From positions 1 to 64,000 of the IMG/VR virus record IMGVR_UViG_3300031787_000096: a DNA stretch of 64,000 nt. One strand, given 5' to 3'. This DNA comes from a virus. Below the pieces are notes generated by a model. That model saw only the letters and a program-made list of their open reading frames with translations, had not been told where the DNA came from and searched no databases. Below are positions 2,250-21,204 of the stretch, in pieces (positions within the stretch are counted from its first letter, which is position 1; each line of letters starts with the position of its first letter). Both the position numbers and the translations under genes were made by a program.

Positions 2250-3242
2250 ATGACCGTCGCCGCTCCTTCCACCAACGGGGCCAGCACCACCAGCCGGCCC
2301 GCTGCTCCTCGTCCTGTCCAGAGGCCTCCCTCAGCTCTGGAGCTGATCCGCTCCGTCGATCGCGCCGTGGAGACTCCAGCGCCAGAGCCTGCAACAGCCT
2401 CGGCACCGGAAGCCCCCCAGGCTCCGCCCTCCGGCTTCTCCCCAGAACAGCTCGCTGCCCTCTCCGCCCCCCTCGATCGGGCCAACGTCCGCCAGCGGGA
2501 GCAGGGCCGCAGCCGTGTGAGCTATCTGGAGGGTTGGCAGGTGATCGCGGAAGCGAACCGCATCTTTGGCTTCGATGGCTGGCAGCGGCAGACCATCGCC
2601 GTCTGCTGCGTCGCCCAGGCCGAACGGCCGATCGGCCGGGACCAGAAGCCTGGCTGGGGCGTCACCTACACCGCTCGCGTGCGCGTCACCGTCACCGCTG
2701 GTGGGCTGCCCCCACTCATCCGCGAGGGCAGTGGCGCCGGCCACGGCATCGACGTGGATCTGGGCCAGGCCCATGAGTCCGCCCTCAAGGAGGCGGAAAC
2801 CGACGCCATGAAGCGGGCCCTGATGACCTTCGGGAATCCGTTTGGCCTTGCCCTCTATGACAAGCGCCAGCGGGAGGTCAGCAGTGCAGCGGGCCAGGGT
2901 GATGGGGCCCAGCGGCCTGGTGGGCAGCGGTCTTCTCTGAGCCGGCCGGAGTCTGGTTCTCCCTCCGCCGACGCTGCCTCCCCGGCTCAGGGCCGCACCC
3001 AGACCACGGCCCCGACGCCAACGCCCTCAGCCCCAGCCGACCCCGGCCAGGTGGCCCTCGATGCCGAGACGATCCAGCGCCTCCACAGCACCCTGCGGGC
3101 TCTCCCCCGCCCCCAGCTGGAGAGCCTCACCCGGGCCTTCCGCAAGCGCTTCCAGGTGCCAGACGATGCCGTGACGATCGCCGATCGGATCAACCAGAAG
3201 TGCCACCACGACTGGATCGAGGCGTTTCTCGTCCAGCAGTAG
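2250..3242 (+). CDS. Rad52-like single-strand annealing protein
   Basis: The 330-residue protein is read from ATG 2250; an upstream in-frame start at 2184 would add an unlikely low-complexity leader. After a Pro/Ala-rich N terminus, about residues 65-205 match the Rad52/Rad22 annealing core: LSAPLDRANVRQREQGRSRV, YLEGWQVIAEANRIFGFDGW, GHGIDVDLGQAHESALKEAETDAMKRAL and FGNPFGLALYD. These proteins coat ssDNA and pair complementary strands in phage recombination. A disordered Ser/Pro linker leads to a C-terminal module (about 278-330: LTRAFRKRFQVPDDAVTIADRINQ) that reappears in the protein at 61398-62168. No partner exonuclease lies beside it; one is at 52.3 kb. Confidence 0.88.
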   Translation: MTVAAPSTNGASTTSRPAAPRPVQRPPSALELIRSVDRAVETPAPEPATASAPEAPQAPPSGFSPEQLAALSAPLDRANVRQREQGRSRVSYLEGWQVIAEANRIFGFDGWQRQTIAVCCVAQAERPIGRDQKPGWGVTYTARVRVTVTAGGLPPLIREGSGAGHGIDVDLGQAHESALKEAETDAMKRALMTFGNPFGLALYDKRQREVSSAAGQGDGAQRPGGQRSSLSRPESGSPSADAASPAQGRTQTTAPTPTPSAPADPGQVALDAETIQRLHSTLRALPRPQLESLTRAFRKRFQVPDDAVTIADRINQKCHHDWIEAFLVQQ

Positions 3243-3304
3243 TCATGGGCAGTTGGGGGCTCCACCGGCCTGGGGCCCCATCGGATCGCCCGACTATCCC
3301 AGGG

Positions 3305-3616
3305 TCAGCCAGCTGCACAGGTCTGGGGCTCGAGCGAGAGCTCGGAGAGCTGTTCAGCCACTTGATACCGGACTTCCTCACTCTGCTGACTCAGCGGCAG
3401 CACCTCCAGACATGGGCTCCCAGAAGTGAGGCTGATCTCCTGGCCCTTCATCAATGGCAGAAGCCTGGGATCCTCAAAGTTGGCGCTGGTCGCAAAGACC
3501 AGGTGCCTGTCGTGATCCGCATCAAAGACGTAGCCCACGACGTAGAACGTCCCGTCGGGACTGGTCGCGCTGGTCACCACCTCGTGGAGAAAAGCTCGGG
3601 TTGGTTGCGCCGCCAT
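3305..3616 (-). CDS. Hypothetical 103-residue protein
   Basis: A small minus-strand gene convergent with the Rad52-like gene. AGAGGAG stands about nine bases before the ATG, a strong ribosome binding site that supports the reading frame. The protein is acidic and mixed alpha/beta in appearance (TFYVVGYVFDADHDRHLVFATSANFEDPRLLPLMKG is split over about residues 23-59), with no signal peptide or membrane segment. I do not recognise the family. Confidence 0.6.
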   Translation of the reverse strand: MAAQPTRAFLHEVVTSATSPDGTFYVVGYVFDADHDRHLVFATSANFEDPRLLPLMKGQEISLTSGSPCLEVLPLSQQSEEVRYQVAEQLSELSLEPQTCAAG

Positions 3617-4342
3617 CGGTGGTTCTCCTCTTCAAGCGATGGGGCTGCTGCTGCACCACAGCCGCACCCTCGGGGGTGCAGTTCGGTGCGCCGCGGTTTC
3701 ACTCGATCGCTTCTGGCAGAGCGAGGGGCGGAAGGAAGTGGACTGGTCGGGCGGCGTGGAAGGCCCGGAATCACTGGCCATGGGCTGACTGCAGAGTCAT
3801 GAACAAGGGACCGCATGGGTAGAAGCAGAGGGCTCCAACTTCCCCCGGCCTTTCTCGTTCCGAAAGGCCAGCCCCGCGGACTTCAAGGTCTAACACCGGG
3901 TTTTGGGGGCGGACACCACCGGTAGCGTCAAGCGGCTTTACGACTTGCCACATTTGGTGGTCAGCCGTAGGATCGCCCCACTTGGAGGGTTGGCTCAGAG
4001 AGTTGTCGCGATAGGGCATCCCGAGAACCGCCGCAACCTACCGCCAGACCCGAAATTGAGAGCCCCTGCGCCGCAGCGGCTCTCATGCGCTCTCAATAAG
4101 CCCTTGTGCCAGTCGAGAAGCTGGCGGCGTTGGTGCACTGCGTTCCGGCCCCCAGCCGGGATGAGTTGAGGCGCAATTACAACGCGGGCTATTGAACGCC
4201 TCGACTGACCCGCAATGAGCAGAGGCCACAGACGCACTTACGTGGCGTAGTTGATGGCGCCTCGTCGTCCCCGTGGGTGTTGGCTGCCAAGAGTGATGCT
4301 GGTCTGCGAACTCGAAAGAGACTTAATCACGGATCATCCGGC
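3617..4342. other. 726-bp intergenic stretch with two stem-loops
   Basis: No reading frame here looks like a gene. Two clear hairpins are present: GGCCTTTC (3847-3854) with GAAAGGCC (3862-3869), and TGAGAGCC (4057-4064) with GGCTCTCA (4078-4085) around a loop that holds a further CTGCG/GCAG pairing. They could be terminators or a structured RNA. The stretch separates the early-type module from the AT-richer island that follows, so it may contain an insertion boundary. Confidence 0.45.
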
Positions 4343-5533
4343 TTAGAAGGGAGCTTGATACCTTGCAAGCAGCTGATCAATTTCACGGGAGAACTGCGCT
4401 TCCTGCTCAGCCAATGAGAAACCGCGTGACATGCCGATGATCCTGGATTGGAACTCTGGCAGCGCTTTTAACTCAGCATAGGACCCCACACCATTTTGAA
4501 GAGCTTGCCTCACAATTGGACGCTGAAGAATATTGTGATAGTGCTTGAAGCCAGGCAACTGATGCTGCATGCTTTCATAGATTTCATCGCGCAGCGTGAT
4601 GAGGTCCCTCCCCAAGTCCCCTGTAGCTTCTCGAGCTCTCGACGCATCACCGTGAGCCTTCACATCTGACTGCTCTTGGGGTAATTGGGCTCCAGCCGGA
4701 GCAAGCGGTAACAACTGCCTTGAATACGACTGGAGCTCACCACGCATCGATGCCAGCTCTTGTCGAACAAAATCGCGCAGCTCTTGGATTGGGGCAGTGC
4801 TTGCCTCCAGTCCATCTTGCATGATTTGCTCGATTTGGCTCAGAAACTCAGGCGTAGAGACCATCTCACCCTCGGATGAGCTTTGAATATCAGGAGCCTG
4901 GGCAGATCCGGGCGATGGTTGCCCAACCTGAAGAATGCCAGAGCTTGCAACCTCAGAAGATATGTGGAAACGATATGGCTCAATTTCCTCTCGTGAGGGT
5001 CGAGCGATGCGAAAACTAAATCGCGTTGCCTCTTCTCGATTGGCATGAGCAACCTGAAGCACGAGATCGTACAGCGCTTGGGCCACGTCAAAAAGTCTCA
5101 GCGATTGAACCCCATAGCAACCGTTAAAAGCAGCCTCGCCGCCAGCAAAGCATCGATGAGCTTCTGAATCCCTGGCTGAACGTAGAGAGAGTGCAAGTCC
5201 TCGAAATTCGCTAAAATAAAATGCAAGGCTTCTCTTCTGTTGCGCATTCAAGCCGAGCGTCAGAGATCTTGAGCTCCTGCGAATACTGCTTATCAAGAAG
5301 CTGGCATAGATCCGCATGTCCCGATTGTCACTGAAAAGCTCCCACCACTGTCCTGATTCACTGAGGTCCCTCGCCCGGTTCTTGGCAACATGCTCCAAGA
5401 TGAATTGCACATCATCCAGCTTGCTAGCCGCTCTTTCATCTGCGGAGAGGCAGAGGTAGCTGACAAAGCAGAGCCATTTGTAGACCTCGGAAACCTGCGC
5501 TCCCATTAGCTCTGTATTAACGAGACTAGCCAT
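4343..5533 (-). CDS. Hypothetical 396-residue helical protein, last gene of a four-gene operon
   Basis: I set the start at ATG 5533 because AGGAGG lies five bases before it; the longer frame (5638) has no such site. The protein appears mainly helical: residues 1-170 are compact, about 190-250 are Ser/Gln-rich, about 225-285 look like a coiled coil (FLSQIEQIMQDGLEA, ELRDFVRQELASMRGELQSY), and a conserved-looking tail follows (LRDEIYESMQHQLPGFKHYH, QSRIIGMSRGFSLAEQE). No catalytic motif or membrane segment is evident. It follows the 64-residue and nuclease-like membrane genes and is noticeably less GC-rich than the phage modules. I do not recognise the family. Confidence 0.7.
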   Translation of the reverse strand: MASLVNTELMGAQVSEVYKWLCFVSYLCLSADERAASKLDDVQFILEHVAKNRARDLSESGQWWELFSDNRDMRIYASFLISSIRRSSRSLTLGLNAQQKRSLAFYFSEFRGLALSLRSARDSEAHRCFAGGEAAFNGCYGVQSLRLFDVAQALYDLVLQVAHANREEATRFSFRIARPSREEIEPYRFHISSEVASSGILQVGQPSPGSAQAPDIQSSSEGEMVSTPEFLSQIEQIMQDGLEASTAPIQELRDFVRQELASMRGELQSYSRQLLPLAPAGAQLPQEQSDVKAHGDASRAREATGDLGRDLITLRDEIYESMQHQLPGFKHYHNILQRPIVRQALQNGVGSYAELKALPEFQSRIIGMSRGFSLAEQEAQFSREIDQLLARYQAPF

Positions 5534-5720
5534 CGAGGCCTCCTGACTGGCACTGGCTTTGCTTATGCCATAACCAATCCTTGTCCACGGGCGTAGTCTC
5601 AATACGAAGGTCAGGGTAAATAGCCTGGCCTTGGTCAACGACTCTCATCTTTTCATCGATGCCAATCGCATGCGGATGGTGAATACAAATATATCGAATA
5701 GACGCATCAAGCGTTTGCAT
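5526..5720 (-). CDS. Small 64-residue protein, translationally coupled
   Basis: The start codon overlaps the stop of the upstream 286-residue gene (TAATG at 5718-5722), and its end overlaps the start of the next gene by eight bases. Such stop-start coupling on both sides supports a real gene despite its size. The protein contains YICIHHPHAIGIDEKMRV and VDKDWLWHKQSQ, a polar His-rich sequence without a membrane segment. The family is unknown; it could be a small adaptor or antidote within the operon. Confidence 0.5.
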   Translation of the reverse strand: MQTLDASIRYICIHHPHAIGIDEKMRVVDQGQAIYPDLRIETTPVDKDWLWHKQSQCQSGGLDG

Positions 5721-6580
5721 TATGTTCGCAACCAGCCAAGAGGCCGAAATCCCATCGCCTCATTGACAAACGCCGTACTAGACATCACCAAGGAAGCGAG
5801 GAGATACGCAGCGACCACAATGTTCAGCCCTGGCACCGATAAGGCGGCGAACAGAGCTGCATATTTGGCTGCCTTGATACCAAGGGTTTTCAGGGTTAGG
5901 TCTCGGAACTGATCCGAGGTGATGCGTCCATCACGAAAGCGCCGCCAGAGCTCAAAGACGATGACTCCCGATGAAAGCAGTGGCAGAACCGGGAAGAAGG
6001 CCCAGATTGTTTCATCAGCTGCATCATTAAGCTCTTGCATCTTGTCTACGAAGTCCTCTACCCGTATCGTCAGATCCTCATTGCTCATGCCGGAGGACTC
6101 CAGAGCCAAGCGTTCAGCCAGCTCCTCAGTCACGAGAATCTCCGTGTCTGGATTGGACTCGATCCAGGCATTGATTAGGCTCGGATTGTCAGTCGCTTTA
6201 AGCTGAATCTCCCATGACTCGTTAGTTGACTGATCAAAGAGCTGGACGTCGACGGATTGGTGGTTCGTTTCCGGGAACAGAGCCGCAAAGACACTGTCAC
6301 CATCAGTGTTTTCAATGATCTGAAACTCCATTTCGTGGAGGATTCCCTTCACATTATTTACCAAACCCGCAACTTGGTCATCGCTAAGGCCATCGAGCTT
6401 CTCAGTGATCTGCTCAAGGGGAAGGTCCCACTCTGGGGAGCTCCTCTTTAACGCTGCCAAAACCCCATAGTCAGGCTCCTCAAGCGAGTCGGATGAAAAG
6501 AGGATTTTGGCCAGAGCGGCCAAAATGGACGCTTCATCAAAGCGGCAGCTGATGTAGCGAATCCCTGGAGTCCGGTTCAT
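5720..6580 (-). CDS. Predicted nuclease-like membrane protein
   Basis: The 286-residue protein begins with a helical domain (1-90). A central alpha/beta part (about 95-160) follows with SVDVQLFDQSTNESWEIQLK: an acidic strand then a (E/Q)-x-K-like strand, reminiscent of PD-(D/E)XK-type folds, although the full signature is not certain. After a linker come hydrophobic helices (FFPVLPLLSSGVIVFELW; AAKYAALFAALSVPGLNIVVAAYLLASLVM), so the C terminus is probably in a membrane. Its start overlaps the stop of the DUF697 gene by four bases (ATGA). The nuclease reading is an inference from one motif; a non-catalytic substrate-binding domain is the alternative. Confidence 0.6.
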   Translation of the reverse strand: MNRTPGIRYISCRFDEASILAALAKILFSSDSLEEPDYGVLAALKRSSPEWDLPLEQITEKLDGLSDDQVAGLVNNVKGILHEMEFQIIENTDGDSVFAALFPETNHQSVDVQLFDQSTNESWEIQLKATDNPSLINAWIESNPDTEILVTEELAERLALESSGMSNEDLTIRVEDFVDKMQELNDAADETIWAFFPVLPLLSSGVIVFELWRRFRDGRITSDQFRDLTLKTLGIKAAKYAALFAALSVPGLNIVVAAYLLASLVMSSTAFVNEAMGFRPLGWLRT

Positions 6581-7113
6581 GATTCCGGCTTGAAGTCTTT
6601 TCCACGTTTACGCCCCTCTGCCTTGGCTTCTCTCCACATCTTCTTCAACTCGGGTGCGGAGACAACCTTGCCTCTTGATTTCTCCTTAAGGTAGTAGTCC
6701 ATGGTCCGCCCCACCGCGTAGGTCAGTCCGTAGACAAGTGGAATCGTTGTAAAGCCAGCCAAGAATGGCAGCCCCACCTTGTACAGGCCCAAAGCTGCTT
6801 GTTGGGCCAACATTCCCATGCCAACGGTCCCTAAAATTTCCTTAAGCAACTCATTGGCCTTCGCCTCAGTGATGGGCATGCCGCGAATAGCGCTCAACCT
6901 TGAGCCCATATAGGCTTGAATTGGCGTCAAGATAAAGATATCGGCGAATGGCAGCGGCTGAGCGGCGGCAGCTGCGCAAGTTGCCGAGAATATATGGATT
7001 GTTCTGGAGATCTTTTCTTCAGTGCTAAGGTCCTCCCTGATTTCGATTTGGGTAACTTCGCGCTCAATCTTTGTCTTGATACGATCTATCCAGTTGCTAT
7101 TGGCGTCAGTCAT
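6577..7113 (-). CDS. DUF697-family membrane protein
   Basis: The 178-residue protein has a charged N terminus (1-45), then hydrophobic helices with the DUF697 pattern: AQPLPFADIFILTPIQAYMG (about 53-72), a polar stretch, GTVGMGMLAQQAALGLYKVG (about 95-114) and LPFLAGFTTIPLVYGLTYAVG. DUF697 regions usually stand beside or are fused to small GTPases or dynamin-like proteins and are thought to act at membranes; no GTPase is present here. GGAG lies five bases before ATG 7113. It heads the operon that runs to 4343. Confidence 0.72.
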   Translation of the reverse strand: MTDANSNWIDRIKTKIEREVTQIEIREDLSTEEKISRTIHIFSATCAAAAAQPLPFADIFILTPIQAYMGSRLSAIRGMPITEAKANELLKEILGTVGMGMLAQQAALGLYKVGLPFLAGFTTIPLVYGLTYAVGRTMDYYLKEKSRGKVVSAPELKKMWREAKAEGRKRGKDFKPES

Positions 7114-7164
7114 GGCTCCAGCCTTCCGGGGCGTGCAATAGTTGCATCACGCCTGGGCAGAGCA

Positions 7165-7170
7165 ATTATA
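7165..7170 (-). promoter_or_regulatory. -10 promoter element of the DUF697 operon
   Basis: On the minus strand the sequence is TATAAT, a consensus -10 box, about 50 bases before ATG 7113 in an AT-richer intergenic stretch (7114-7295). A matching -35 (around 7188-7193) is poor. It is the best promoter candidate for the four genes 7113-4343. Confidence 0.5.
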
Positions 7171-7295
7171 CAAGAACCCGCGGGAGAAATCTAGCTTCCA
7201 TCAATAGCTTTGCTCTTCCGCGCATGAATACGTGTGCACGGCGTAATCGTGCTAAGGCTATTGTGGGCATTGCTACGGCATCTAGAACTTGCATT

Positions 7296-7961
7296 TCAAG
7301 CTTGTATTGGGATCCAACCAGCCAGTAGCTTCCAGCCCACAGGCCCCTCAGGCCAGTCCTCTATCGGCGGAGTCCAAGGAACACTGAGACTGATCACTGC
7401 ATAGCCCTGCTGCCCAGTGATTTCCCGACCATTGAGCTTTTCAGTAAGTACGCAGTCAGTGACGCTGATTCCCCGAAGCTCAATGCCTTCGGTTGTGGAC
7501 AGCGTTGCTTTCCACTTGCCGCCACTTTGGTCAAAATCAATACGGCGTACTTTGCGAAGTTCAAGAGTCGTGCGCTCAGCAAGTGGCTTTAACTCGATCA
7601 CGTCGGGACGTGTGTATTTGGCTTGGGAATGCAGGATCCGAGCAGCGGTGCAGAGATAGCGATGAAGATCTCTGGTGCCAGCCACACCTAACTTTGTCCA
7701 GGGTGTCGCTTCGATCCAGCGATTTTCTTTGGCATGGCAGTAGTCAAACCCAGCAGGACCATCGTGAGCTAGATCCATCTGGATTAGATCTAGGGGTTGC
7801 GGCTCTTGGCCATTTGCCTGACGCTCGCGAAGAGGCACCTCCCCTTTTGGAGTATGGCGGCTTACGGGGCGCACCCACTGCCCGGTACGCACATCGATGC
7901 CGGCGATGCAGCGTTCGCCCTCCTTTTTAGAGTTGGCCAGGCAGAGCACAGTAGTTTCCAT
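7296..7961 (-). CDS. Dual OB-containing domain protein
   Basis: The 221-residue protein starts METTVLCLANSKKEGERCIAG and continues with GQWVRPVS, the usual opening of dual OB-fold proteins found next to DUF488 genes. Two beta-rich halves are suggested: about 1-60, and about 120-200 with LELRKVRRIDFDQSGGKW and ELRGISVTDC. A nucleic-acid-binding role is plausible from the fold, but the target is unknown. It follows the second DUF488 gene with only three bases between, so the three genes are one transcription unit. No catalytic residues are evident. Confidence 0.7.
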   Translation of the reverse strand: METTVLCLANSKKEGERCIAGIDVRTGQWVRPVSRHTPKGEVPLRERQANGQEPQPLDLIQMDLAHDGPAGFDYCHAKENRWIEATPWTKLGVAGTRDLHRYLCTAARILHSQAKYTRPDVIELKPLAERTTLELRKVRRIDFDQSGGKWKATLSTTEGIELRGISVTDCVLTEKLNGREITGQQGYAVISLSVPWTPPIEDWPEGPVGWKLLAGWIPIQA

Positions 7962-7964
7962 ACC

Positions 7965-8414
7965 TCAGAGGTGCACGATCTCCACTCCTCCTCCAAGATG
8001 ATTCTTGAAGAACTCTGCTGCCAGCCTTCTGTGGCAATGGTGTGGAGTTGCCTCACTGCAAAGCAAGCAAGCCCCATCCAGCAAGTCGGCTGGAAAGAGC
8101 TCTTCGACATGGCGCTTGTCGATCAGATCGTTGTAAGCGGTGGCATATGTGTCCCAGGTGATCTCGCCTTTCTTGTAGCTCTTTAGAATGTCGTCAGTAG
8201 GCGCGAGCTTCAGGGCATGATCATAGCTTACCCCAGCCACCTTATCCAAGAAGAATGCAAGATCATCCTTCTTGGTGAATCCCGCCAGCTGCGAAACATT
8301 GTTCAGTCGCGTGTCCAGCACTTTATTTACTCCACTCTTCTGTATCAATTCAAAGAATTGCTTGGCGTTCTTCTTGGTGAATCCAATCGTGTAGAGCGTG
8401 ATCTTCTTACCCAT
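7965..8414 (-). CDS. DUF488 family protein (second copy)
   Basis: The 149-residue protein has the DUF488 plan: LYTIGFTKKNAKQFFELIQK at the start, VLDTRLNNVSQLAGF, then a C-terminal CLLCSEATPHHCHRRLAAEF motif, equivalent to the LLC-E-x-P-x-CHR signature. The conserved Cys, Glu, His and Arg suggest an enzyme-like centre, but the reaction is not known. It lies nine bases after the first DUF488 gene and is more divergent and less GC-rich than it. The pair has probably diverged into different roles. Confidence 0.82.
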   Translation of the reverse strand: MGKKITLYTIGFTKKNAKQFFELIQKSGVNKVLDTRLNNVSQLAGFTKKDDLAFFLDKVAGVSYDHALKLAPTDDILKSYKKGEITWDTYATAYNDLIDKRHVEELFPADLLDGACLLCSEATPHHCHRRLAAEFFKNHLGGGVEIVHL

Positions 8415-8423
8415 GGGAATGCA

Positions 8424-9098
8424 TCAGGCGGCAATCAGTGGTTTGGTGTAAGCAATCCGCCGCCCTTGTTGGCGGTAGGCCTCATCAAGCTCTTCTTCTG
8501 GGCTGATTAGTCGGCCCTGAGTGACCTCGCGACCTAGAAGATCCAACTGCACATCTCCTCCTGAGACCTCCAGGATGCCGAGTCTCTGCAAGGCCCGGCG
8601 CATGCGGTGTTCTAGCTCCTGATGGCTCTCCAGTGATCCATCTCCAAGGATGTGCTGCACGTCCACCCCCCTGGCCTGAAGGTGCCGGCTGACTAGGATC
8701 GATCGATGGCATGTCAGGGGGTCCCGCTCTGCGCATAGCAGCGCCAGGGTCAGCCCTCGTCCCAGCCCCTTCAGCACCCGGCTCAGGCCTAGTTGAAAGG
8801 CTGGCAACTGAGCCACACGTTCATAGGCAGCCTGCAGCCCGTCGTAGGCCGATTCCTCCTCCCTCCGGGCGCCCAGCTCCTCCCCAAGGAACACGTAGCG
8901 GATGCCGTGCTGGTGGAACTCCGCCTCAAGCTCAGGCCTGTTGAACTGTGGTAGACGGCGGCTGTAAGGCATGGAGCGGACATCCGCCACAGCGTTGATC
9001 CCATGCAGCTGGAGCAGTCCCACCAGCTGGCTCAGAGTCTGGTTGGAGTGGCCGACCGTGTAGAGACGCACGGGATGCACGCTGCTCAGCGTCCCCAT
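8424..9098 (-). CDS. DUF488 family protein (first copy)
   Basis: I start at ATG 9098 (MGTLSS); the longer frame would read through low-complexity intergenic DNA. The 224 residues include LYTVGHSNQTLSQLVGLL, VADVRSMPYSRRLPQFNRPE, IRYVFLGEELGAR and LALLCAERDPLTCHRSILVS, the full DUF488 signature (DVR-x-P-x-SR, LGG-like turn, C-x-E-x-P-x-x-CHR). A C-terminal extension (about 165-224) is specific to this subgroup. It is the first gene of the DUF488-DUF488-dual-OB operon, a gene arrangement I have seen as a conserved set but cannot assign a function. Confidence 0.85.
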   Translation of the reverse strand: MGTLSSVHPVRLYTVGHSNQTLSQLVGLLQLHGINAVADVRSMPYSRRLPQFNRPELEAEFHQHGIRYVFLGEELGARREEESAYDGLQAAYERVAQLPAFQLGLSRVLKGLGRGLTLALLCAERDPLTCHRSILVSRHLQARGVDVQHILGDGSLESHQELEHRMRRALQRLGILEVSGGDVQLDLLGREVTQGRLISPEEELDEAYRQQGRRIAYTKPLIAA

Positions 9099-9212
9099 TC
9101 TGTCAAAGACGCCCCGGATCGAGCAGGGCCTGGCGGGTCCTTCAGTTGCGGACTGGGATTTCGGCGTGCCGGGCCTCGACTCGACCCCATGACAGGCGTT
9201 GTGGGCGGTCAT

Positions 9213-9224
9213 GGGGGGGGGGGG
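9213..9224 (+). repeat. Run of 12 G
   Basis: An uninterrupted run of 12 guanines lies in the intergenic region upstream of the DUF488 operon. Such runs slip in replication and are also prone to sequencing error. At this place it would affect promoter spacing rather than a reading frame. Confidence 0.8.
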
Positions 9225-9274
9225 CTGGCCATGGGGCTGGCGATCACGCCACTCGGCCTGCCCCGGCTTGCGCA

Positions 9275-9327
9275 CCGCGCAAGGGCTGACGCGAGTCGCT
9301 CCGCTGCGCTGCGCGACCCTTGCGCGG
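9275..9327. repeat. Bulged palindrome element 1
   Basis: CCGCGCAAGGG (9275-9285) pairs perfectly with CCCTTGCGCGG (9317-9327). Inside, bases 9286-9295 (CTGACGCGAG) are an unpaired one-sided bulge and TCGC (9296-9299) pairs with GCGA (9313-9316). The loop contains CTCCGCTGCGCTGCG, shared with element 3 (27.4 kb) and resembling element 4 (37.7 kb). It lies 48 bases before a small plus-strand gene. Confidence 0.65.
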
Positions 9328-9375
9328 CGCTGGCGGCGCCGGGGCTGAACGGCGGTGTCGTTCGCCAGCCCAGCC

Positions 9376-9588
9376 ATGGCCGCCACTCCCCTGGTCCGCG
9401 CCTGCCCGATCCGCATCATCTCGGTGCACCTGCTCGATGCCGCCGGCCAGCTGCTGCGGGTGCTGTTCCTCGATCGCGAGGGCCATATCAGCGCCCAGCC
9501 GCACTACGTGCCCAGGGCCGAGGCCCTGATCCTGGCCTCCAATCAGCAGCGAGTGCTTGGGCCCCAGGCCAGGGTGCACGTGCTCTGA
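9376..9588 (+). CDS. Small hypothetical protein (70 residues)
   Basis: From ATG 9376 the product is MAATPLVRACPIRIISVHLL and onward, a compact beta-like protein ending in LGPQARVHVL, with no signal peptide. It stands alone after palindrome element 1 and before the DUF6932 pair. The style (short, ATG without a Shine-Dalgarno site, preceded by a large palindrome) matches the small plus-strand genes at 37800 and 38311. Family unknown. Confidence 0.45.
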   Translation: MAATPLVRACPIRIISVHLLDAAGQLLRVLFLDREGHISAQPHYVPRAEALILASNQQRVLGPQARVHVL

Positions 9589-9800
9589 GGCGCCAGCGCC
9601 TCTCCCGGCTGGCACTGCCGGCCGGGATTTACCGGATCCCTGTCGGAGGGTTCCGCCTGGCGATCGGGCTGGGTATAAACCGGGAGCACCTTCCGGCCGA
9701 TGCTCAGTTACACCGCCGCCTCCCATCGTGGCAACGATGGCCCCACAAGCGCCTGGGGCATCAGAGGGGGGTGCGCACGGGGAACCGGAGGTTGGTGAGC

Positions 9801-10259
9801 ATGCCAATCCCTGGGTTCAATCGGTATGGATTGCTACCTGACGGAGTTTACGGATGCACGATGTCAGAAGTGGAGGCAGCACTGGCATGGAATGACCAAC
9901 GCCGCAGGCTGACTGATTCGCTGCAGGCGTTCATCAGAGATGAGCTCCTAGATCGCTTCACAACGATTCCGCCACTTGTGCTCGATGGCAGCTATGTCAC
10001 CTCAGAAGAGCACCCAGCAAATATCAACCTCGTGATTGAGCTGCAGGGCCTGCCGAGTGATCAGCAATGGGAGGGGCAAATGCTCTACGTGCGCAACGCC
10101 GAGCTGTTTGGCACCTACAACATTGACATGCGACCCAGCCTGGAGAAGCTTGGCCAGGACTTTGTCAGCTATTTCCGCTCCTGGGATCCCAAAAAGGCGC
10201 TTGAGAAGGAACTTGATTGCAAGCTCGTCAAGAAAGGGCTGCTGAGGTTGATGTCATGA
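9801..10259 (+). CDS. DUF6932 family protein
   Basis: The 152-residue product starts MPIPGFNRYGLLPDGVYGCT, the typical opening of DUF6932 proteins (IP.f...G.LP.GiH..t..E), followed by AALAWNDQRRRLTDSLQAF and LVLDGSYVTSEEHPANINLVIEL. The Gly-Ser plus spaced acidic pattern is suggestive of a nucleotidyltransferase-like fold; that is an inference. GGAGG lies about ten bases before the ATG. The stop overlaps the start of the next gene (ATGA at 10256-10259), so the two are co-translated. An in-frame extension back to 9003 runs through a palindrome and is not credible. Confidence 0.68.
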   Translation: MPIPGFNRYGLLPDGVYGCTMSEVEAALAWNDQRRRLTDSLQAFIRDELLDRFTTIPPLVLDGSYVTSEEHPANINLVIELQGLPSDQQWEGQMLYVRNAELFGTYNIDMRPSLEKLGQDFVSYFRSWDPKKALEKELDCKLVKKGLLRLMS

Positions 10260-11266
10260 GCAGCTGGATCGACATCGTCGAGGGCAAAGCCCGCATCATC
10301 CACCGAGAGCTCCTGGCAGCGCGAGAACTGGCCGTGCAGCTGGGCAAAGACCCTGAGATGGTCAGCACACCGTATTTCGAGCTGCTCGCCAGGCTCTATC
10401 GCGACGAATTCCCCTACGCATCACTGGCTGATCAGGCCGATCTGGTCGCTCGATTCACGGGGCCTGGTGTGATGACCCACGAGCCGCCCATCTCCCTTGT
10501 CACCGGCGCATTCTCGAAGCTGCGCACCCAGATTCAGAAGATCGCCAAGTCAATCGCAGGTCTCAGCGAAGAGAAGCGCGTTCGCTGGCCGGCAGACCTG
10601 GATCCGTATCTCTCAGGGCTGGCCTATGGAAGCCTGGTCGTGGGAATGCGGGTCCCGAGGCCAGATGATGTCGGGGTCCAGGGGCAACTGGTGCTTGAGG
10701 GGGTGACCGATGGCCTCTATGAAGCCGTGCGCGAGGCGGTGTGCAGCCTCCCCTTGATTCCCAGGCTCATCAAAGATGAAGCCGTCAGTGAGGATGTCTA
10801 TTCCCTGTTCCCTGACCCGGCTGTTCGCGACACCGTCATGGTGGCAGCCCAGAAGCTTGCACCCACCCCCAGGAGCAAGGCCATCACCGAGCTGTTCCTC
10901 AGTTGTCCTGGGGAAAGCCAGGTGGCGCCCGCGGCACTCACCCGAGAGAGCGGCAAGATCCTGCAGCGATCCTTGGATCAGGCATCAGGGCAGCGCTTCC
11001 GGGGGACTGATGCCTTCGAGGGGGTGGTGCGCGAGATCGACCTGGATGCTCTGCGCTTTGAAATCCGAGGAGCCCGGTATCAACGCGGAATCCGCTGCAT
11101 CTACGACGAACGGCATAAAGGGCAGGCGCGCGAGATCCTGGACTGCACTGTCCGGGTCAGTGGTAGCTACGAGGCCGCGGCCGATGAACAGCCCAGGCTT
11201 GTGGCGGTGGAATCGATCGAGATCCTCAAGAGACCACCGGAGCAGATGGCCCTGTTGGGGCAGTGA
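10256..11266 (+). CDS. Hypothetical 336-residue partner of the DUF6932 protein
   Basis: Starts at ATG 10256, sharing four bases with the stop of the DUF6932 gene. Residues 1-150 are helical (WIDIVEGKARIIHRELLAAR, LRTQIQKIAKSIAGLSEEKR); about 240-336 look beta-rich with REIDLDALRFEIRG, RGIRCIYDERHKGQAREILD and ending LKRPPEQMALLGQ. The size and the tight pairing suggest the two proteins act together, perhaps as a toxin-antitoxin or defence pair. I recognise no catalytic motif. Confidence 0.65.
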   Translation: MSSWIDIVEGKARIIHRELLAARELAVQLGKDPEMVSTPYFELLARLYRDEFPYASLADQADLVARFTGPGVMTHEPPISLVTGAFSKLRTQIQKIAKSIAGLSEEKRVRWPADLDPYLSGLAYGSLVVGMRVPRPDDVGVQGQLVLEGVTDGLYEAVREAVCSLPLIPRLIKDEAVSEDVYSLFPDPAVRDTVMVAAQKLAPTPRSKAITELFLSCPGESQVAPAALTRESGKILQRSLDQASGQRFRGTDAFEGVVREIDLDALRFEIRGARYQRGIRCIYDERHKGQAREILDCTVRVSGSYEAAADEQPRLVAVESIEILKRPPEQMALLGQ

Positions 11267-11298
11267 TCCCCTCTCCGACGCCTGCCAATCTCGGAAGC

Positions 11299-12279
11299 TC
11301 AGCCGAGCCCCACGTACACCGGCTGAAACCACTGCATCCGCCGGCTCTGACGCTTCTCGCCATGCAGCACGGTGTGCCAATGGCCCCGGCGCCAGTGGGG
11401 CCGGCGCGCGGTGCCGCTGCTGTTGGTGCCAGCCGTGGCCCCTTCTGAAGGAGCCCTTGGGGTGCGATCGAGCCGGAAGTCCTTGCCGATCCAGACCGGG
11501 CCTTGGGGTTTCACGGGGCCGGCGTCATCGGCACTGCCGGCCGAGAAACCCTTGCCGCTCGGCACCTTGGCCGCCGGGCCCGTGGTGAGCAGCTCCGGTT
11601 GGTAGAGCTGCATCAGGAGGGCGTTGATCGCCAGGCCCTCCATCCGTTGGTTGGTGCTCTGCACCGCCTGTTCGTCCCACTGCCAGGCCGGGTGGCTCAG
11701 GTCTTCCACAGTCGGCTGCCGTTCGCCGATCTGCTGAAAGGAATGGCGGGTGAGATAGCTGGTGCCATCGAGGGCCAGGCCGACGCAGCTGATGCCGCTG
11801 ATCCGCTTGGCCTCAGCCGGCAGCCAGTCGGCCATCGCTCGCAGGTCGGCCACGATCACCACCGGGATTGGCACGCCGTCTTCTGTGAACAGAGCTCCAT
11901 CGGGAAGCATCAGCCGGAAGCAGGGCAGCACCAGCGGCAGCTCGTCATCCAGGTGGGGTGAGGGTGTGCGGCGGAAGGCCTCCGCCAGCTCCGGCGCCAG
12001 GAAGCGAGGCGGAGCTTCGACGATCCGCGCCCAGCGGCAGGTGGTGGCGGCCCAGAAGCCGATCGGATCGGCCAGCTCGTTCATCACCTCCGCGCCGGCC
12101 TCGATCAGGGCGGCGTAGGCCAGGTGATTGGCCCAGTGCTGGAAGCCCCGCGGGGAGCGGTAGCGGTGCTGCTCCTGCTGGATGTACGGATCCTGGCGGC
12201 GCAGTTCCGTGATCACCGTGCCGATCGGTGGCAGGTCCGCCTGGCTGGCCCGGATCGATTCAGGCGTCAGCCGGCTCAT
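11299..12279 (-). CDS. Hypothetical 326-residue protein with a C-terminal RRPHWRRGHW motif
   Basis: A soluble protein with aromatic-rich N-terminal part (FQHWANHLAYAALIEAGAEV, about 46-65) and a disordered Ser/Gly/Pro linker (about 235-290). It ends in RRPHWRRGHWHTVLHGEKRQ and MQWFQPVYV. Similar HWR-G-HW...W-P-V tails occur on many proteins of phages, plasmids and islands. From memory this tail resembles proteins annotated as the AcrVA2 anti-CRISPR family, but I could not verify this. Its start overlaps the stop of the 88-residue gene before it by four bases. Confidence 0.6.
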   Translation of the reverse strand: MSRLTPESIRASQADLPPIGTVITELRRQDPYIQQEQHRYRSPRGFQHWANHLAYAALIEAGAEVMNELADPIGFWAATTCRWARIVEAPPRFLAPELAEAFRRTPSPHLDDELPLVLPCFRLMLPDGALFTEDGVPIPVVIVADLRAMADWLPAEAKRISGISCVGLALDGTSYLTRHSFQQIGERQPTVEDLSHPAWQWDEQAVQSTNQRMEGLAINALLMQLYQPELLTTGPAAKVPSGKGFSAGSADDAGPVKPQGPVWIGKDFRLDRTPRAPSEGATAGTNSSGTARRPHWRRGHWHTVLHGEKRQSRRMQWFQPVYVGLG

Positions 12280-15211: not shown

Positions 15212-18200
15212 ATGGAGATAATCGACAATTCCTCGGCCTTGCTAGGCGAAGACCTGAAGAAAGCACTCGGGAAAGGAAGTCGATTAAGAATTGCCGCATC
15301 ATGTTTTTCGATCTATGCCTTCGAAGCCCTCAGGCATGAGCTAAGCGCAATCGACGAGCTGAGATTTATTTTTACAGCGCCAACATTTATTCCGGCTCAG
15401 GCGACAGATAGACTTAAAAGAGAGCACAGAGAGTTTCACATACCAAAGAGCAGCAGAGAAAGGGGGCTATACGGAACCGAATTTGAGATACAGCTACGCA
15501 ACAAGCTGACACAAAGAGCTGTGGCACGTGAATGCGCCGAGTGGATACGCAGAAAGGCCAAGTTCAGCTCGAACACATCGCCCGCCCCAATGCAGCAATT
15601 TATCCACGTCTCACAGCCGGGGACGGATGCTGCATATATGCCGGTCAGCGGATTCACGATGGTTGACTTGGGCTACCAGAGAGGTGATGCGGTCTCGAAC
15701 TTTGTGACCAGGTTCAGCGAGCCTAGTCACACACAGGTCTACCTTCAGCTCTTTGAGCAGATTTGGGCAGACCCCGAGAAAGTAAAAGACGTAACCGAAT
15801 TAATCTGCGATCACATAGCGTCAGTATATCAAGAAAACTCGCCAGAGAAAATCTATTTCCTCATTCTGCATAATATTTTTAGAGACTTTTTGGAGACGGT
15901 GGACGCCGACAGTCTCCCAAATGACCGAACTGGGTATCAAGAAACCAAGATCTGGCAGAAGCTCTTTAACTTCCAAAGAGACGCTGCCACAGGAATAATC
16001 AACAAACTAGAGTCTTTTAATGGGTGCATTCTTGCAGACAGCGTCGGCCTTGGCAAAACCTTTACTGCACTCGCCGTCATTAAGTACTACGAGTTACGGA
16101 ATAGATCCGTTTTGGTGCTCTGCCCCAAAAAGCTTGCGGATAACTGGCGCAACTACAACACGAATCTGACAACAAACATATTTGCGAAGGATCGCTTTAA
16201 CTATGATGTATTGAACCACACGGATCTCTCTCGTAGCTCCGGGGAGTCGTACGGAATCCCGCTGAACCGAGTGAATTGGGGCAACTATGATTTAGTCGTG
16301 ATTGACGAATCGCACAACTTTCGCAATAACGATATCTATAAAGATCGAGAGACGCGTTATCAGAAGCTTATGAACCAGGTGATTCGGGCAGGCGTCAAAA
16401 CAAAAGTCTTGATGCTATCGGCGACTCCAGTGAACAATCGATTCACGGATCTCCGCAACCAACTTGCGCTTGCCTACGAGGGAGAGTCTGATGAACTTAG
16501 CAGGTATCTCAAAACAGAGGTCAGCATAGAAGAGATCTTTCGTCAGGCCCAGAGAGCATTCAACGAATGGTCATCTCAGTCTCCCGAAGAGAGGACGGCC
16601 GCTTCAATTCTGAATGCTCTCAGCTTCGATTTCTTTGAACTTCTTGATGCCGTCACGATAGCACGCTCAAGAAAACATATTGAGACTTTCTATGACACGA
16701 AGGATATCGGAAAGTTTCCACAGCGGCTGAAGCCACTCTCGTTTCACTGCCCGATCACATACCGCACTGACGTGATGGGGCTGAATGATATTTTCGCCCA
16801 ACTCTCCGTTCTCAAGTTGGCCGTCTATGCGCCGATCAGTTACGTACTGCCAAGTCGGCTTCGCAAATACGAGGAGATATATGACACACAAGTTGAAGGC
16901 GGAAGAGGAAAACTGAAGCAAGCTGATCGAGAGCGCAGCCTACAAGCTCTCATGACAACTAATCTGCTCAAGCGCCTGGAGAGCTCAGTTCAAGCCTTTC
17001 GGCTCACGCTCAGGGCTCTTTCCAGCAATATCTCGCGAAACCTGGAAGCCATTGAAACCTTTGAAAAGACAGGCCGTAATATTGAGGTGAGCGACTTCCT
17101 TGCCCAATCGAGTCAGTTTGATACAGAAGACGAAGATCTGTCTGGCCTTGATGAATTCACGGTAGGCAAGAAAATCAAGATCAGTCTTGCAGATATGGAT
17201 CTGCCGACATGGAAGCATGACCTAGCTGCTGATCTGATCTTGATCGAGGACCTCATTGCCTCAATGGAGAAGGTAGAACCTGGCGACGACTCCAAGCTGC
17301 AACATCTGCTCGGGCTGATCAAGCAGAAGGTTGATGCTCCATTGAACCCAGGTAACCGCAAGCTGCTGATCTTCACGGCTTTTGCTGACACTGCAAATTA
17401 CCTCTTCGCTAATTTGGCGCCCTTTGCACAGCAGCTGGGACTCCACGTTGGGAGGGTTACGGGCTCCGAATCGCCCAAGACCACGCTGAAGAAGGTGTAT
17501 GACTTCCAGGGTGTCCTGACGCTGTTCTCACCAAGATCGAAAGAAAAGGCCATTGTGTTTCCGGACGAGACAGCGGAGCTCGACATTCTGATCGGGACTG
17601 ATTGCATTTCCGAAGGCCAAAACCTACAGGACTGTGACTTTTTAATCAACTATGACATCCACTGGAACCCAGTCAGGATTATCCAGCGGTTTGGTCGGAT
17701 TGACAGGATTGGCTCACCCAATAGCCAGATCCAGCTTGTTAACTACTGGCCAGACATCACGCTCGATGAGTACATCAACCTCAAAGAACGTGTCGAGAAC
17801 CGAATGGTCATCACGGATATCACCGCCACAGGCGACGATAACGTGCTCACTGCCAAGTCAAGCGAGATAACCTACCGAAAGGAACAACTCAAGCGGCTCC
17901 AGGACGAGGTCATCGAGCTTGAAGATGTAAAGGCCGGCATCTCTATTACGGATCTCGGGCTGAACGATTTCCGAATGGACCTGCTCAATTACGTCAAGGA
18001 ACATGGCGATCTCGATACCGTGCCATTCGGCATGCACGCTGTCGTGCCGGCACTGCCGGAGATGGGCCTCCAGCCAGGCGTCATCTTCGCGCTAAAGAAC
18101 ATTCACGACAGCGTCAATGTCAACCAGCAGAACCGGCTGCACCCGTTCTACCTTGTCTACATCGCTGGAGACGGTCAGATCGTCGCTGACCATACAGAGG

Positions 18201-18484
18201 TCAAGCGCGTGCTCGACTTGATCCGATCCAGTTGCAAAGGGCGCATCGAGCCCATTCGCGACGTCTGCCGCATTTTCAATGAATGCACAGATGACGGGCG
18301 CAAGATGGATCATTATTCAGACCTTCTCTCAAGCGCTATCCGTTCCATGGTCGAGGTCAAGGAGGGAAAAGATATCGACAGCCTATTTAGCGGCGGAAGC
18401 ACTACAGCGTTAACCAACATCATTCAAGGGCTGGAAGACTTCGAGCTGATTGCGTTTCTGGTCGTACAAGGAGGTCACGTATGA
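15212..18484 (+). CDS. SNF2-type helicase with N-terminal PLD-like region
   Basis: The 1090-residue protein has an N-terminal alpha/beta region (1-170) resembling a PLD-like module without a visible HxK motif, then a SWI2/SNF2 ATPase: motif I DSVGLGKTFTA (about 278), II VVIDESHNF (about 365), III LSATPVNNR, and in the C-terminal half ISEGQNLQDCDFLINYDIHW with RIIQRFGRIDRIGS (about 795-835). Such proteins translocate on duplex DNA. It is the first gene of a tight locus (stop overlaps the DUF4391 start by four bases), so it probably works with the Mod and Res products in restriction of foreign DNA. Codon use is less GC-rich than the phage modules, suggesting separate acquisition. Confidence 0.88.
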   Translation: MEIIDNSSALLGEDLKKALGKGSRLRIAASCFSIYAFEALRHELSAIDELRFIFTAPTFIPAQATDRLKREHREFHIPKSSRERGLYGTEFEIQLRNKLTQRAVARECAEWIRRKAKFSSNTSPAPMQQFIHVSQPGTDAAYMPVSGFTMVDLGYQRGDAVSNFVTRFSEPSHTQVYLQLFEQIWADPEKVKDVTELICDHIASVYQENSPEKIYFLILHNIFRDFLETVDADSLPNDRTGYQETKIWQKLFNFQRDAATGIINKLESFNGCILADSVGLGKTFTALAVIKYYELRNRSVLVLCPKKLADNWRNYNTNLTTNIFAKDRFNYDVLNHTDLSRSSGESYGIPLNRVNWGNYDLVVIDESHNFRNNDIYKDRETRYQKLMNQVIRAGVKTKVLMLSATPVNNRFTDLRNQLALAYEGESDELSRYLKTEVSIEEIFRQAQRAFNEWSSQSPEERTAASILNALSFDFFELLDAVTIARSRKHIETFYDTKDIGKFPQRLKPLSFHCPITYRTDVMGLNDIFAQLSVLKLAVYAPISYVLPSRLRKYEEIYDTQVEGGRGKLKQADRERSLQALMTTNLLKRLESSVQAFRLTLRALSSNISRNLEAIETFEKTGRNIEVSDFLAQSSQFDTEDEDLSGLDEFTVGKKIKISLADMDLPTWKHDLAADLILIEDLIASMEKVEPGDDSKLQHLLGLIKQKVDAPLNPGNRKLLIFTAFADTANYLFANLAPFAQQLGLHVGRVTGSESPKTTLKKVYDFQGVLTLFSPRSKEKAIVFPDETAELDILIGTDCISEGQNLQDCDFLINYDIHWNPVRIIQRFGRIDRIGSPNSQIQLVNYWPDITLDEYINLKERVENRMVITDITATGDDNVLTAKSSEITYRKEQLKRLQDEVIELEDVKAGISITDLGLNDFRMDLLNYVKEHGDLDTVPFGMHAVVPALPEMGLQPGVIFALKNIHDSVNVNQQNRLHPFYLVYIAGDGQIVADHTEVKRVLDLIRSSCKGRIEPIRDVCRIFNECTDDGRKMDHYSDLLSSAIRSMVEVKEGKDIDSLFSGGSTTALTNIIQGLEDFELIAFLVVQGGHV

Positions 18485-19203
18485 CTCTCTACGAATGGCC
18501 ACGCGCCGCTGCATTCGGTCGCGTGATCCCCAAGAACAAGATCTACGAACACGCTGGAGCAAACACTGCACTGAAAGCGACATTCGTGCGTGAGGTTGAT
18601 CAAATTATTTGGTCGCATAAGCTTGCACCTGAGACGGTGAATGTGGTGGCGACCAAGCAGGTGAGTGAAATCCAGGTTTTCCGTATTGCCGCACACAGCG
18701 CAACATTGGATCAGGAGGTGCTGAGTGCTATTGACCAAGCCATTCCCTTTCCGCTCTTTTTTGAGGTGACTAATGGTGAACATGTCATGGTAGCCGCCGC
18801 CTACAAGCGACCAAGCGAAGCCGACAGTAGCCGCTTCGTCCTCGGCAACTACTTTCTGAGTGATTGGTTTCCAGCGAGTGGGCAGCGCACAGCCTTCCCC
18901 GTAGCGCTGAACATGTGCACGCTGTACGAACGTCTTCTTGAGCCTCTGGTAAGGCGGCAGTTGGCCCAGCTGGTTGCCAATGCGAGCGGAATCATGAACT
19001 CGCCGATCGCCCCTGAGGTCGCAGATCAACCAGTTTCACTGGAGGCCCGCATCGCCCAGGCCGAGGCGATCAAGGCAAAGGTCCATGAGGTCATGCGTAT
19101 CAGGGCACGGCTGGCACGAGAGAGACAGTTCAATAAGCGAGTTGCGATCAATGCCGAGCTACGGACAGCCAAACAAGAACTTGAACGATTATCTACAGGG
19201 TAA
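18481..19203 (+). CDS. DUF4391 domain protein
   Basis: The 240-residue protein starts LYEWPRAAAFGRVIPKNKIY EHAG and continues with FVREVDQIIWSHKLAPETVN, EIQVFRI, PFPLFFEV, FPVALNMCTLYERLLEPLV, the DUF4391 pattern, ending with a coiled coil (about 185-240). DUF4391 proteins are known mainly from loci with helicases and type III-like methyltransferases; their role is unknown. AGGAGG precedes the start, and its ATG overlaps the stop of the helicase gene. Confidence 0.85.
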   Translation: MTLYEWPRAAAFGRVIPKNKIYEHAGANTALKATFVREVDQIIWSHKLAPETVNVVATKQVSEIQVFRIAAHSATLDQEVLSAIDQAIPFPLFFEVTNGEHVMVAAAYKRPSEADSSRFVLGNYFLSDWFPASGQRTAFPVALNMCTLYERLLEPLVRRQLAQLVANASGIMNSPIAPEVADQPVSLEARIAQAEAIKAKVHEVMRIRARLARERQFNKRVAINAELRTAKQELERLSTG

Positions 19204-19243
19204 TCCCGTCAAGGCTCCAACCAACTTCTCTAAGACCACCAGC

Positions 19244-21196
19244 ATGGACAAGCTAAAGATGCACAGCCCGAATCTAAGTCAGGAGAACATCTCAAAGATT
19301 CGTGAACTGTTCCCCGCCTGCGTGACGGAAGCACGCGATGAGGCGACAGGCACAGTCCGTCTTGCGGTTGATTTTGATCAGCTCCGTCAGGAGTTGAGTG
19401 ATGAAAGCATAGAAGGTTCGCAGGAGAGATATAGATTAGATTGGCCGGGGAAGAGAAATGCAACTCTACTCGCAAATAGTCCAACGACACAAACCCTCAG
19501 GCCACTCTTAGATGAGAGCGTCGAATTTGAAACCGCAAGGCATCTGGTTATCGAGTCAGACAACATAGACGCGTTGAGGATGCTGCAGGATGCATACCTA
19601 GGTGCATGCAAGGCTATTTACATCGATCCTCCATATAACACAGGTTCCGACTTTATCTACCAAGATAGCTTTGCAACGGACAAGAGATCCTACGGCCTTA
19701 GTTCTGGTGTTGCTGATAGTGAGGGCCGGAAACTTGTTGCGAACACGAATGCCAATGGCCGCTTTCACTCTGATTGGCTCAGCATGATCTATCCAGCCCT
19801 TAAGATAGCCAGAAATCTCTTGACCGAAGATGGCCTTATATTTATCAGCATCGATCAGAACGAGGTATATAATCTTCAACGGCTTGCCTGCGAGGTTTTT
19901 GGAGAAAACAATTTTCTGAATGACTTTATTTGGGTAAACAATCTCAAAGGAAGGCAGATTAGCGGTAGTGGAGCTGCCCGCACGCATGAACACGTGCTTT
20001 TATTTGCCAAGAATGCTGAGGCAGTAGGACCTTTATATACAGACATTGCTTACGTCAAACGCCTAATGCCATCTGTATATCGTGGCTTCGATTATGAAGT
20101 CGAGGAGGATGAGCGCGGTCCCTATGTCATAAAGAATGAGCTTTACAATACAAACTCCAAGTTTAATGAAGATACACGACCAAACCTTGTATACAAAATT
20201 TTCTATAATCCCGCCACAGGTGCGGTGGACACGGGCGATCTTTCTGAGTCACCGGCCAGTGACGACTGGGTAGAAATCCTGCCTCACTCCAATAACAATG
20301 GTAGAAATAGATATCACGCATGGAGGTGGGGGCGAGATAAGGTTAAGAACGAGTATTTTGATCTGCTCTTCAAGAAAGTTGGTTCTAAATGGAAGGTTTA
20401 TACCAAGGTCAGAACCGTTAACAATACGGCGGTTAAAGATCTTATCATGGATATCTCAACTCAGTCCGGATCGCGGGACTGCGAATCTAGGCTTGGAGAA
20501 AGTTTCTTCGACTTCCCAAAGCCGGTTGATCTAGTGGAATTTCTACTCGGGTCGTGTACTAGTTGTGACTCAGATCATATTGTACTTGACTTTTTTGCAG
20601 GATCTGGAACGACCGGTGAAGCAGTATTAAGACTTAATTCCAAGGATGGAGGTAATCGTAGGTTCATCTTAGTTCAGGCCCCAGTTCTCATCAAGGCCGT
20701 CTCTCTAGAAGATTCTACTTATTCGACCATTGCTGATATTACGCGTCAACGCATTCGTGCCGTTATTGAATCACTAAACTCGCCAATTGACTCGGGCTTT
20801 CGATCTCTTTTGGTGGATTCATCAAATATGAAGGACGTGTACTATCTGCCAGATCAGCTGTCGCAGGCTAACTTGCTGGATATGGTGGACAATGTGAAGG
20901 AGGACCGAACGGGAGAAGACCTTTTATTCCAAGTATTAATCGATTGGGGAGTCGACCTTACTCTGCCCATCCGCCGCAGAACGGTGCAGGACAAGACCGT
21001 TTTCTTTGTAGATGATAATTCTCTTATCGCCTGCTTTGAGTCAACTGTTACTGAAGATCTAGTAAAAGAGCTTGCAAGTCTTGAGCCTCTGCGAGTTGTA
21101 TTCCGCGACAATGGCTTTGTCTCGGACGCGGTGAAGATCAACGTCGAGCAGATCTTCCGCCAGCTTTCGCCGACAACCGAAGTAAAGGCAATTTGA
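19244..21196 (+). CDS. mod: Type III restriction-modification DNA methyltransferase (Mod)
   Basis: Read from ATG 19244 (650 residues); the longer frame overlaps the DUF4391 gene too far. Motif IV DPPYNTG is at about residue 128, followed by a long target-recognition region, and the AdoMet-binding motif I appears late as [12 protein letters not shown] (about 448). This beta-class order and DPPY are typical of Mod subunits making N6-methyladenine. The recognition site cannot be read from sequence. It should form the modification part with the Res subunit encoded just after, whose gene starts eight bases after its stop. Confidence 0.92.
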
Positions 21197-21204
21197 GGAC
21201 TGTC

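What the first reader, a model, noticed from the sequence alone, without database searches (positions are those of the whole stretch)
4343..7113. Undescribed four-gene operon: DUF697 membrane protein, nuclease-like membrane protein, 64-residue protein, 396-residue coiled-coil protein
All four genes run on the minus strand with coupled starts (ATGA 6577-6580, TAATG 5718-5722, eight-base overlap at 5526-5533), a TATAAT box ahead and an AGGAGG before the last gene. One product combines a D...E-x-Q-L-K-like alpha/beta domain with membrane helices; another is DUF697, which usually needs a GTPase partner that is absent here. The set is AT-richer than the phage modules and sits in a cargo island next to restriction genes. 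I infer a membrane-associated defence or abortive-infection operon; this is not established.
Basis: partly seen in the sequence, partly recalled or inferred. Interest (0 to 1): 0.8.

Follow-up and report, generated by a model that had tools for sequence, protein, structure and literature searches.

The report
Membrane-nuclease gene pair in phage island
Two coupled genes, one for a small membrane protein and one for a membrane-anchored protein that looks like a DNA-cutting enzyme, travel together across distant bacteria and repeatedly sit inside known anti-virus systems, so they are probably a two-part antiviral defence that has not been tested in the laboratory.

Summary
The coordinates and overlaps are correct, but the four genes are not one unit. 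The unit is genes A (DUF697, 6577-7113) and B (5720-6580). A and B are adjacent, mostly with coupled starts, or fused, in 17 other loci from Cyanobacteria, Pseudomonadota, Desulfuromonadales, Bacteroidota, Marinimicrobia and Bacillota. Searching with A alone found two new genomes; both have B next to it. B belongs to PDC-M72B, an unvalidated PADLOC defence candidate. Its predicted core has the alpha-beta3-alpha-beta order of PD-(D/E)XK nucleases, with invariant E83, D111 and K128 and near-invariant Q126, followed by hydrophobic helices. A-B lies inside two BREX operons (4 nt from pglX), beside type III CRISPR genes in two loci, and near a type ISP restriction enzyme. In the window it lies with PDC-M45 genes in a roughly 6 kb island. 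A sibling phage has 0.4 kb there; another has Hma genes. The 64-residue ORF C is not conserved and is probably not a gene. The 396-residue gene D is real, but a cyanobacterial prophage with A-B at 97-99% identity lacks it. Most likely A-B is a membrane-anchored nuclease defence module. Nuclease activity, trigger and antiphage activity are inferred.

The parts
6577..7113 (-). Gene A: DUF697 membrane-type helical protein, 178 aa; first gene of the conserved pair
   Evidence: Pfam DUF697 1.8e-06, 28.2 bits; found beside or fused to B in 17 other loci; 11 synonymous against 2 non-synonymous codon changes to the G226 copy
5720..6580 (-). Gene B: PDC-M72B protein, 286 aa; PD-(D/E)XK-like core (about residues 67-158) followed by hydrophobic helices
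   Evidence: PADLOC PDC-M72B 1.1e-21; AF2 model pLDDT 84.8, core mostly above 95; invariant E83, D111, K128 in 56 sequences
6068..6481 (-). Conserved core of B (residues 34-171) used for the family search
5526..5720 (-). ORF C, 64 aa: probably not a gene
   Evidence: no conserved counterpart between B and D in L005; absent from G226
4343..5533 (-). Gene D, 396 aa: optional accessory with a conserved RDSEAH motif (possible HEPN-type RNase, weak lead)
   Evidence: relatives only in Vulcanococcus, one piece directly after A-B; absent from the G226 prophage
5539..5544 (-). AGGAGG ribosome-binding site ahead of D
   Evidence: sequence
7296..9116 (-). Upstream neighbours: PDC-M45A (DuOB, 7296-7961), PDC-M45C (DUF488, 7965-8414), PDC-M45B (DUF488, 8424-9116); same island, probably a separate candidate system
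   Evidence: PADLOC and Pfam; kept together with A-B in G226
3239..9222 (.). Cargo island: present here, 396 bp in sibling phage G001, Hma genes at this site in sibling G012

Best explanation
A and B form a two-component, membrane-anchored defence module. A (DUF697) and the C-terminal hydrophobic helices of B hold a PD-(D/E)XK-like nuclease domain at the inner face of the membrane. There it most likely cuts incoming phage DNA, or cuts nucleic acid once a phage-triggered membrane or DNA signal is sensed. A is the anchor, sensor or control subunit and B the effector. In the window the pair travels with PDC-M45 genes in a cargo island of a cyanobacterial temperate phage, where it would protect the lysogen from rival phages. 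Shown: the A-B linkage and fusion, the embedding in defence operons, the island, and conservation of the putative active-site residues. Inferred: membrane location, nuclease activity, the trigger and antiphage function. D would be an optional extra.
For: Linkage: A and B adjacent in 13 genome loci and fused in one 470-residue ORF, L012; each of those genomes has exactly one strong A copy, the one by B. A-first searches of 399 genomes of the cyanobacterial order and 321 of the gammaproteobacterial class found only A copies with B next to them, two of them in new genomes. A-partnered B proteins form one clade, support 0.96, together with L014, where A is replaced. Embedding: BREX operons L016 and L017 (PglX, A, B, AlkB-like ... 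PglZ, gaps of a few nt; BrxC seen in L016); Card1/Cmr in L013 and Cas10 in L063, with B beside a Csm6-type gene and Cmr2 in L027; type ISP enzyme in L011. Fold: AF2 core mostly above pLDDT 95 with the alpha-beta3-alpha-beta order; Foldseek lists repeatedly contain influenza PA endonuclease, DdmD, Bse634I, Ecl18kI, FokI and FAN1. Island: 0.4 kb empty site in G001, Hma genes at the same site in G012. Selection: A 11 to 2 and B 25 to 9 synonymous to non-synonymous codon changes.
Against: No significant fold or profile match to a proven nuclease: best Foldseek E 0.07, and that to a flagellin; hhalign to one Mrr domain gave probability 0.7%. E124 varies (E in 40 of 56), so the motif is D...QxK rather than the classical ExK. 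Hydropathy shows one marginal segment in A and two in B, so membrane insertion is not certain. Several loci (L006, L009, L012, L193) show no known defence neighbour in what was scanned, and no shuffled-neighbour control was made. No antiphage or toxicity data exist.
Confidence: 0.6

Rival explanations
1. B is a catalytically dead PD-(D/E)XK-like domain that only binds DNA or nucleotides, and the defence effect is membrane damage by the A-B helices (abortive infection by depolarisation).
For: The E of the ExK motif is not conserved; A and B both have hydrophobic helices, and most B relatives checked are fused or adjacent to a Gly-rich membrane partner of the PDC-M09A family.
Against: E83, D111 and K128 are invariant in 56 sequences and Q126 in 55, the pattern of a kept active site with Q in place of E.
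Confidence: 0.2
2. A-B is an accessory of larger systems (BREX, type III CRISPR, restriction) and does nothing alone.
For: It sits inside BREX operons and beside type III CRISPR genes with spacings of a few bases.
Against: Other carriers, including the window and G226, have it without BREX or CRISPR genes next to it; the same pair with three unrelated hosts systems suggests self-sufficiency.
Confidence: 0.1
3. A-B is not defence but a membrane or DNA-handling module, for example DNA uptake, entry exclusion or plasmid/phage maintenance.
For: Some loci have no known defence neighbour; relatives occur on plasmids.
Against: Embedding in BREX operons, a phage cargo hotspot with other defence genes, and a patchy, rare distribution: 2 of 399 genomes in the cyanobacterial order.
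Confidence: 0.1

Closest known systems
PDC-M72 (PADLOC phage defence candidate, unvalidated)
   Same: B matches the M72B models at 1.1e-21 and 1.6e-20
   Different: no match to an M72A model among the eight genes scanned in the window; the partner here is DUF697, which matches no PADLOC defence model at a convincing level
PDC-M09A plus M72B fusions and pairs of Rhodobacteraceae and others
   Same: same B core, also joined to a hydrophobic partner, adjacent or fused
   Different: the partner is a different Gly-rich family, not DUF697, and B lacks the A-group C-terminal helices in the alignment
DUF697 / YcjF-type proteins
   Same: A passes the Pfam DUF697 cut-off
   Different: no GTPase domain or GTPase neighbour; partner is a nuclease-like protein
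PD-(D/E)XK nucleases (Mrr-like D...QxK, influenza PA, DdmD nuclease domain)
   Same: predicted topology and order of conserved acidic residue, Q and K
   Different: no significant sequence or fold score; unusual invariant N-V-K-G-I-x-H-E helix
Kiwa and Zorya (membrane component plus DNA-acting component)
   Same: general plan of membrane protein plus DNA-acting partner (from own knowledge)
   Different: no PADLOC profile match of A or B to their components

Membership tests
PDC-M72 | M72B protein | tested here: met
   E 1.1e-21
PDC-M72 | M72A partner protein | tested here: not met
   no M72A match at E up to 1 among the eight genes scanned around B in the window, nor for the A homologues of L016, L010, L063 at E up to 0.01
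PDC-M72 | antiphage activity | not testable with these tools
   no experiment; candidate system is unvalidated
DUF697 / YcjF | DUF697 profile | tested here: met
   28.2 bits against cut-off 27.7
DUF697 / YcjF | GTPase domain or partner | tested here: not met
   none in A, B or the neighbours scanned
PD-(D/E)XK nuclease superfamily | alpha-beta-beta-beta-alpha-beta core | tested here: met
   AF2 secondary structure H67-92, E97-101, E112-116, E121-128, H133-142, E147-150; a prediction
PD-(D/E)XK nuclease superfamily | conserved D and (D/E/Q)xK residues | tested here: met
   D111 and K128 in 56 of 56, Q126 in 55 of 56
PD-(D/E)XK nuclease superfamily | significant fold or profile match to a known member | tested here: inconclusive
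   many family members in the Foldseek lists but none with E below 0.001; hhalign to Mrr not significant
PD-(D/E)XK nuclease superfamily | metal-dependent nuclease activity | not testable with these tools
   needs biochemistry
Kiwa / Zorya | KwaA/KwaB or Zor protein profiles | tested here: not met
   no such hits for A-D
HEPN RNase (gene D) | R-x4-6-H motif in a helical domain with profile support | tested here: inconclusive
   RDSEAH conserved in the window and Vulcanococcus D proteins, but no Pfam match

The most novel reading that the evidence does not exclude
DUF697, normally linked to GTPases, is here the dedicated membrane partner of a D...QxK nuclease, making a new class of membrane-docked nuclease that destroys phage DNA at entry and is used both alone and as a plug-in of BREX and type III CRISPR operons.
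Probability: 0.3. Interest if true: 0.75.

Novelty: new variant of a known kind. Interest (0 to 1): 0.55.

Why it matters
If true, it gives a function to a widespread domain of unknown function (DUF697) outside its GTPase role. It also adds a small, testable two-gene module to the set of membrane-linked defences, and shows that BREX, type III CRISPR and phage cargo islands draw on the same plug-in. Two short genes are easy to clone, and the predicted catalytic residues make a clear test possible.

Tried and rejected
Single-sequence scans of genome and viral collections with B found nothing; the three-sequence core alignment found 77 genome and 5 viral loci. Viral scans with D and with the A alignment found nothing. 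PDB profile searches gave only helical or chance matches. Foldseek top hits to flagellin and other filaments were rejected as helix matches. The L012 fusion model has low overall pTM (0.49), so no A-B interface is claimed from it. C as a gene was rejected. The four-gene unit was rejected on the G226 comparison. A Kiwa or Zorya label was rejected for lack of profile hits. The literature search for DUF697 with phage defence gave nothing relevant, and PDC-M72 is not named in any held paper.

Full report
Observation. A is DUF697 just above the Pfam cut-off; B, C and D have no reliable Pfam or NCBIfam match. The promoter is not supported beyond the -10 box. GC is 51.5% against 62.7% for the window, but other cargo, such as the type III restriction genes at 49.1%, is as low.

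What B is. PADLOC names B PDC-M72B at 1.1e-21. PDC entries are unvalidated candidates found by embedding in known defence systems (PMC12988326; PMC10855318). PDC-M72 itself is not discussed in any held paper. A three-sequence core alignment led to 77 genome loci and 5 viral loci. Over 56 aligned B proteins G72, N76, K78, G79, I80, H82, E83, D111 and K128 never vary; Q126 is Q in 55 and E124 is E in 40. AlphaFold2 gives a confident core: a helix carrying N76-E83, then three strands with D111 just before the second and Q126/K128 at the end of the third, then helix and strand. This is the order of PD-(D/E)XK nucleases, in the D...QxK form known from Mrr-like enzymes (family knowledge). Foldseek lists for the window model and for the L012 fusion model both contain influenza PA endonuclease, DdmD and restriction enzymes, but no match is significant. 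An Mrr domain aligns in the expected register without significance. The nuclease fold is therefore likely, not proven. After the core come helices with two strongly hydrophobic segments.

What the unit is. The A profile finds one strong copy per carrier genome, always directly upstream of B in the same direction, with overlaps or gaps of a few bases in most loci, or fused to B in L012. Searching with A alone gave only the two carriers in 399 genomes of the cyanobacterial order (G015, G226). In 321 gammaproteobacterial genomes it gave two known carriers and two new ones, both with B overlapping by four bases. With the window that makes 18 loci. B proteins with a DUF697 partner form one clade with support 0.96, which also holds L014, whose partner is replaced. 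The cyanobacterial copies sit next to gammaproteobacterial ones, which suggests horizontal transfer. Most other B relatives checked use a Gly-rich membrane partner of the PDC-M09A family, adjacent or fused.

Context. In Algibacter (L016) and Saccharicrinis (L017) A-B lies inside BREX operons between pglX and an AlkB-like gene, followed downstream by pglZ. In Thiothrix (L013) it adjoins a Card1 gene and Cmr genes; in Desulfovirgula (L063) a Cas10 gene lies downstream, and in Desulfotomaculaceae (L027), where the contig begins within B, B adjoins a Csm6-type gene and Cmr2. In Seonamhaeicola (L011) a type ISP restriction enzyme lies a few genes on. Several other loci show no defence neighbour in what was scanned. 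There is no shuffled-neighbour control, so the association is argued from the close embedding, not from a statistic.

The island. The window is part of a 66.9 kb IMG/VR record with terminase, endolysin, primase and helicase genes. Sibling contigs align to both sides of window 3239-9222. G001 has 396 bp there instead of 5,984; G012 has HmaC- and HmaB-like genes directly after the left flank; G002 has a BnzA-like gene a few kb from the right flank. The site is therefore a cargo hotspot. A 3.2 Mb cyanobacterial chromosome (G226) carries window 5744-11428 at 92% identity, with A 98.9% and B 96.8% identical, but lacks window 4125-5743, that is C and D. Changes in A and B there are mostly synonymous.

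D and C. D has clear relatives only in Vulcanococcus limneticus, as two pieces at two contig ends. Their best conserved stretch contains RDSEAH, which fits the HEPN R-x4-H motif; this is a lead without profile support. C has no sign of coding conservation.

How it likely works. The anatomy suggests a membrane-anchored nuclease: A and the B tail in or at the membrane, the B core facing the cytoplasm, cutting phage DNA on entry or after a signal. Steps shown: linkage, fusion, clade, embedding, island, conserved residues. Steps inferred: membrane insertion, catalysis, trigger, protection. Main rivals are a dead nuclease domain with membrane damage as the effect, an accessory role for the larger systems, and a non-defence membrane or DNA-handling role.

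Novelty. B was already a listed candidate; its DUF697 partnership, the BREX, CRISPR and phage-island embedding, and the nuclease-like fold were not found described in the held literature. I file it as a new variant of a known kind.

Noticed in passing
window 15212-24324: Further defence-type cargo: an HKD/Snf2 helicase matching PADLOC C3a139 (3e-130) and a complete type III restriction-modification pair.
   Followed up: partly
window 7296-9116: PDC-M45A/C/B set (DuOB plus two DUF488 proteins) directly upstream of A, kept with A-B in the G226 prophage.
   Followed up: partly
L177 3331-9001 (sibling contig G012): HmaC- and HmaB-like genes at the island site where the window carries A-B.
   Followed up: partly
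L178 308-4263 (sibling contig G002): A BnzA-like TerB/membrane protein, an HNH-like protein and an ArdC/zincin-like protein near the same site.
   Followed up: no
L002, L024, L035, L070 and other B loci: M72B fused to a PDC-M09A-like membrane domain; L035 and L043 follow type I restriction HsdR genes. A second, larger branch of the family.
   Followed up: partly
L192 5998-6795, L193 6932-7939: A carries extra N-terminal sequence of unknown kind in these two gammaproteobacterial genomes.
   Followed up: no
L176 5050-5838 (contig G004): A psbA (photosystem II D1) reading frame shortly after phage-like genes, so this contig probably runs from a prophage into a cyanobacterial chromosome.
   Followed up: no
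L016 11377-12948: A two-component ADP-ribosyltransferase/glycohydrolase-type protein inside the same BREX operon as A-B.
   Followed up: no
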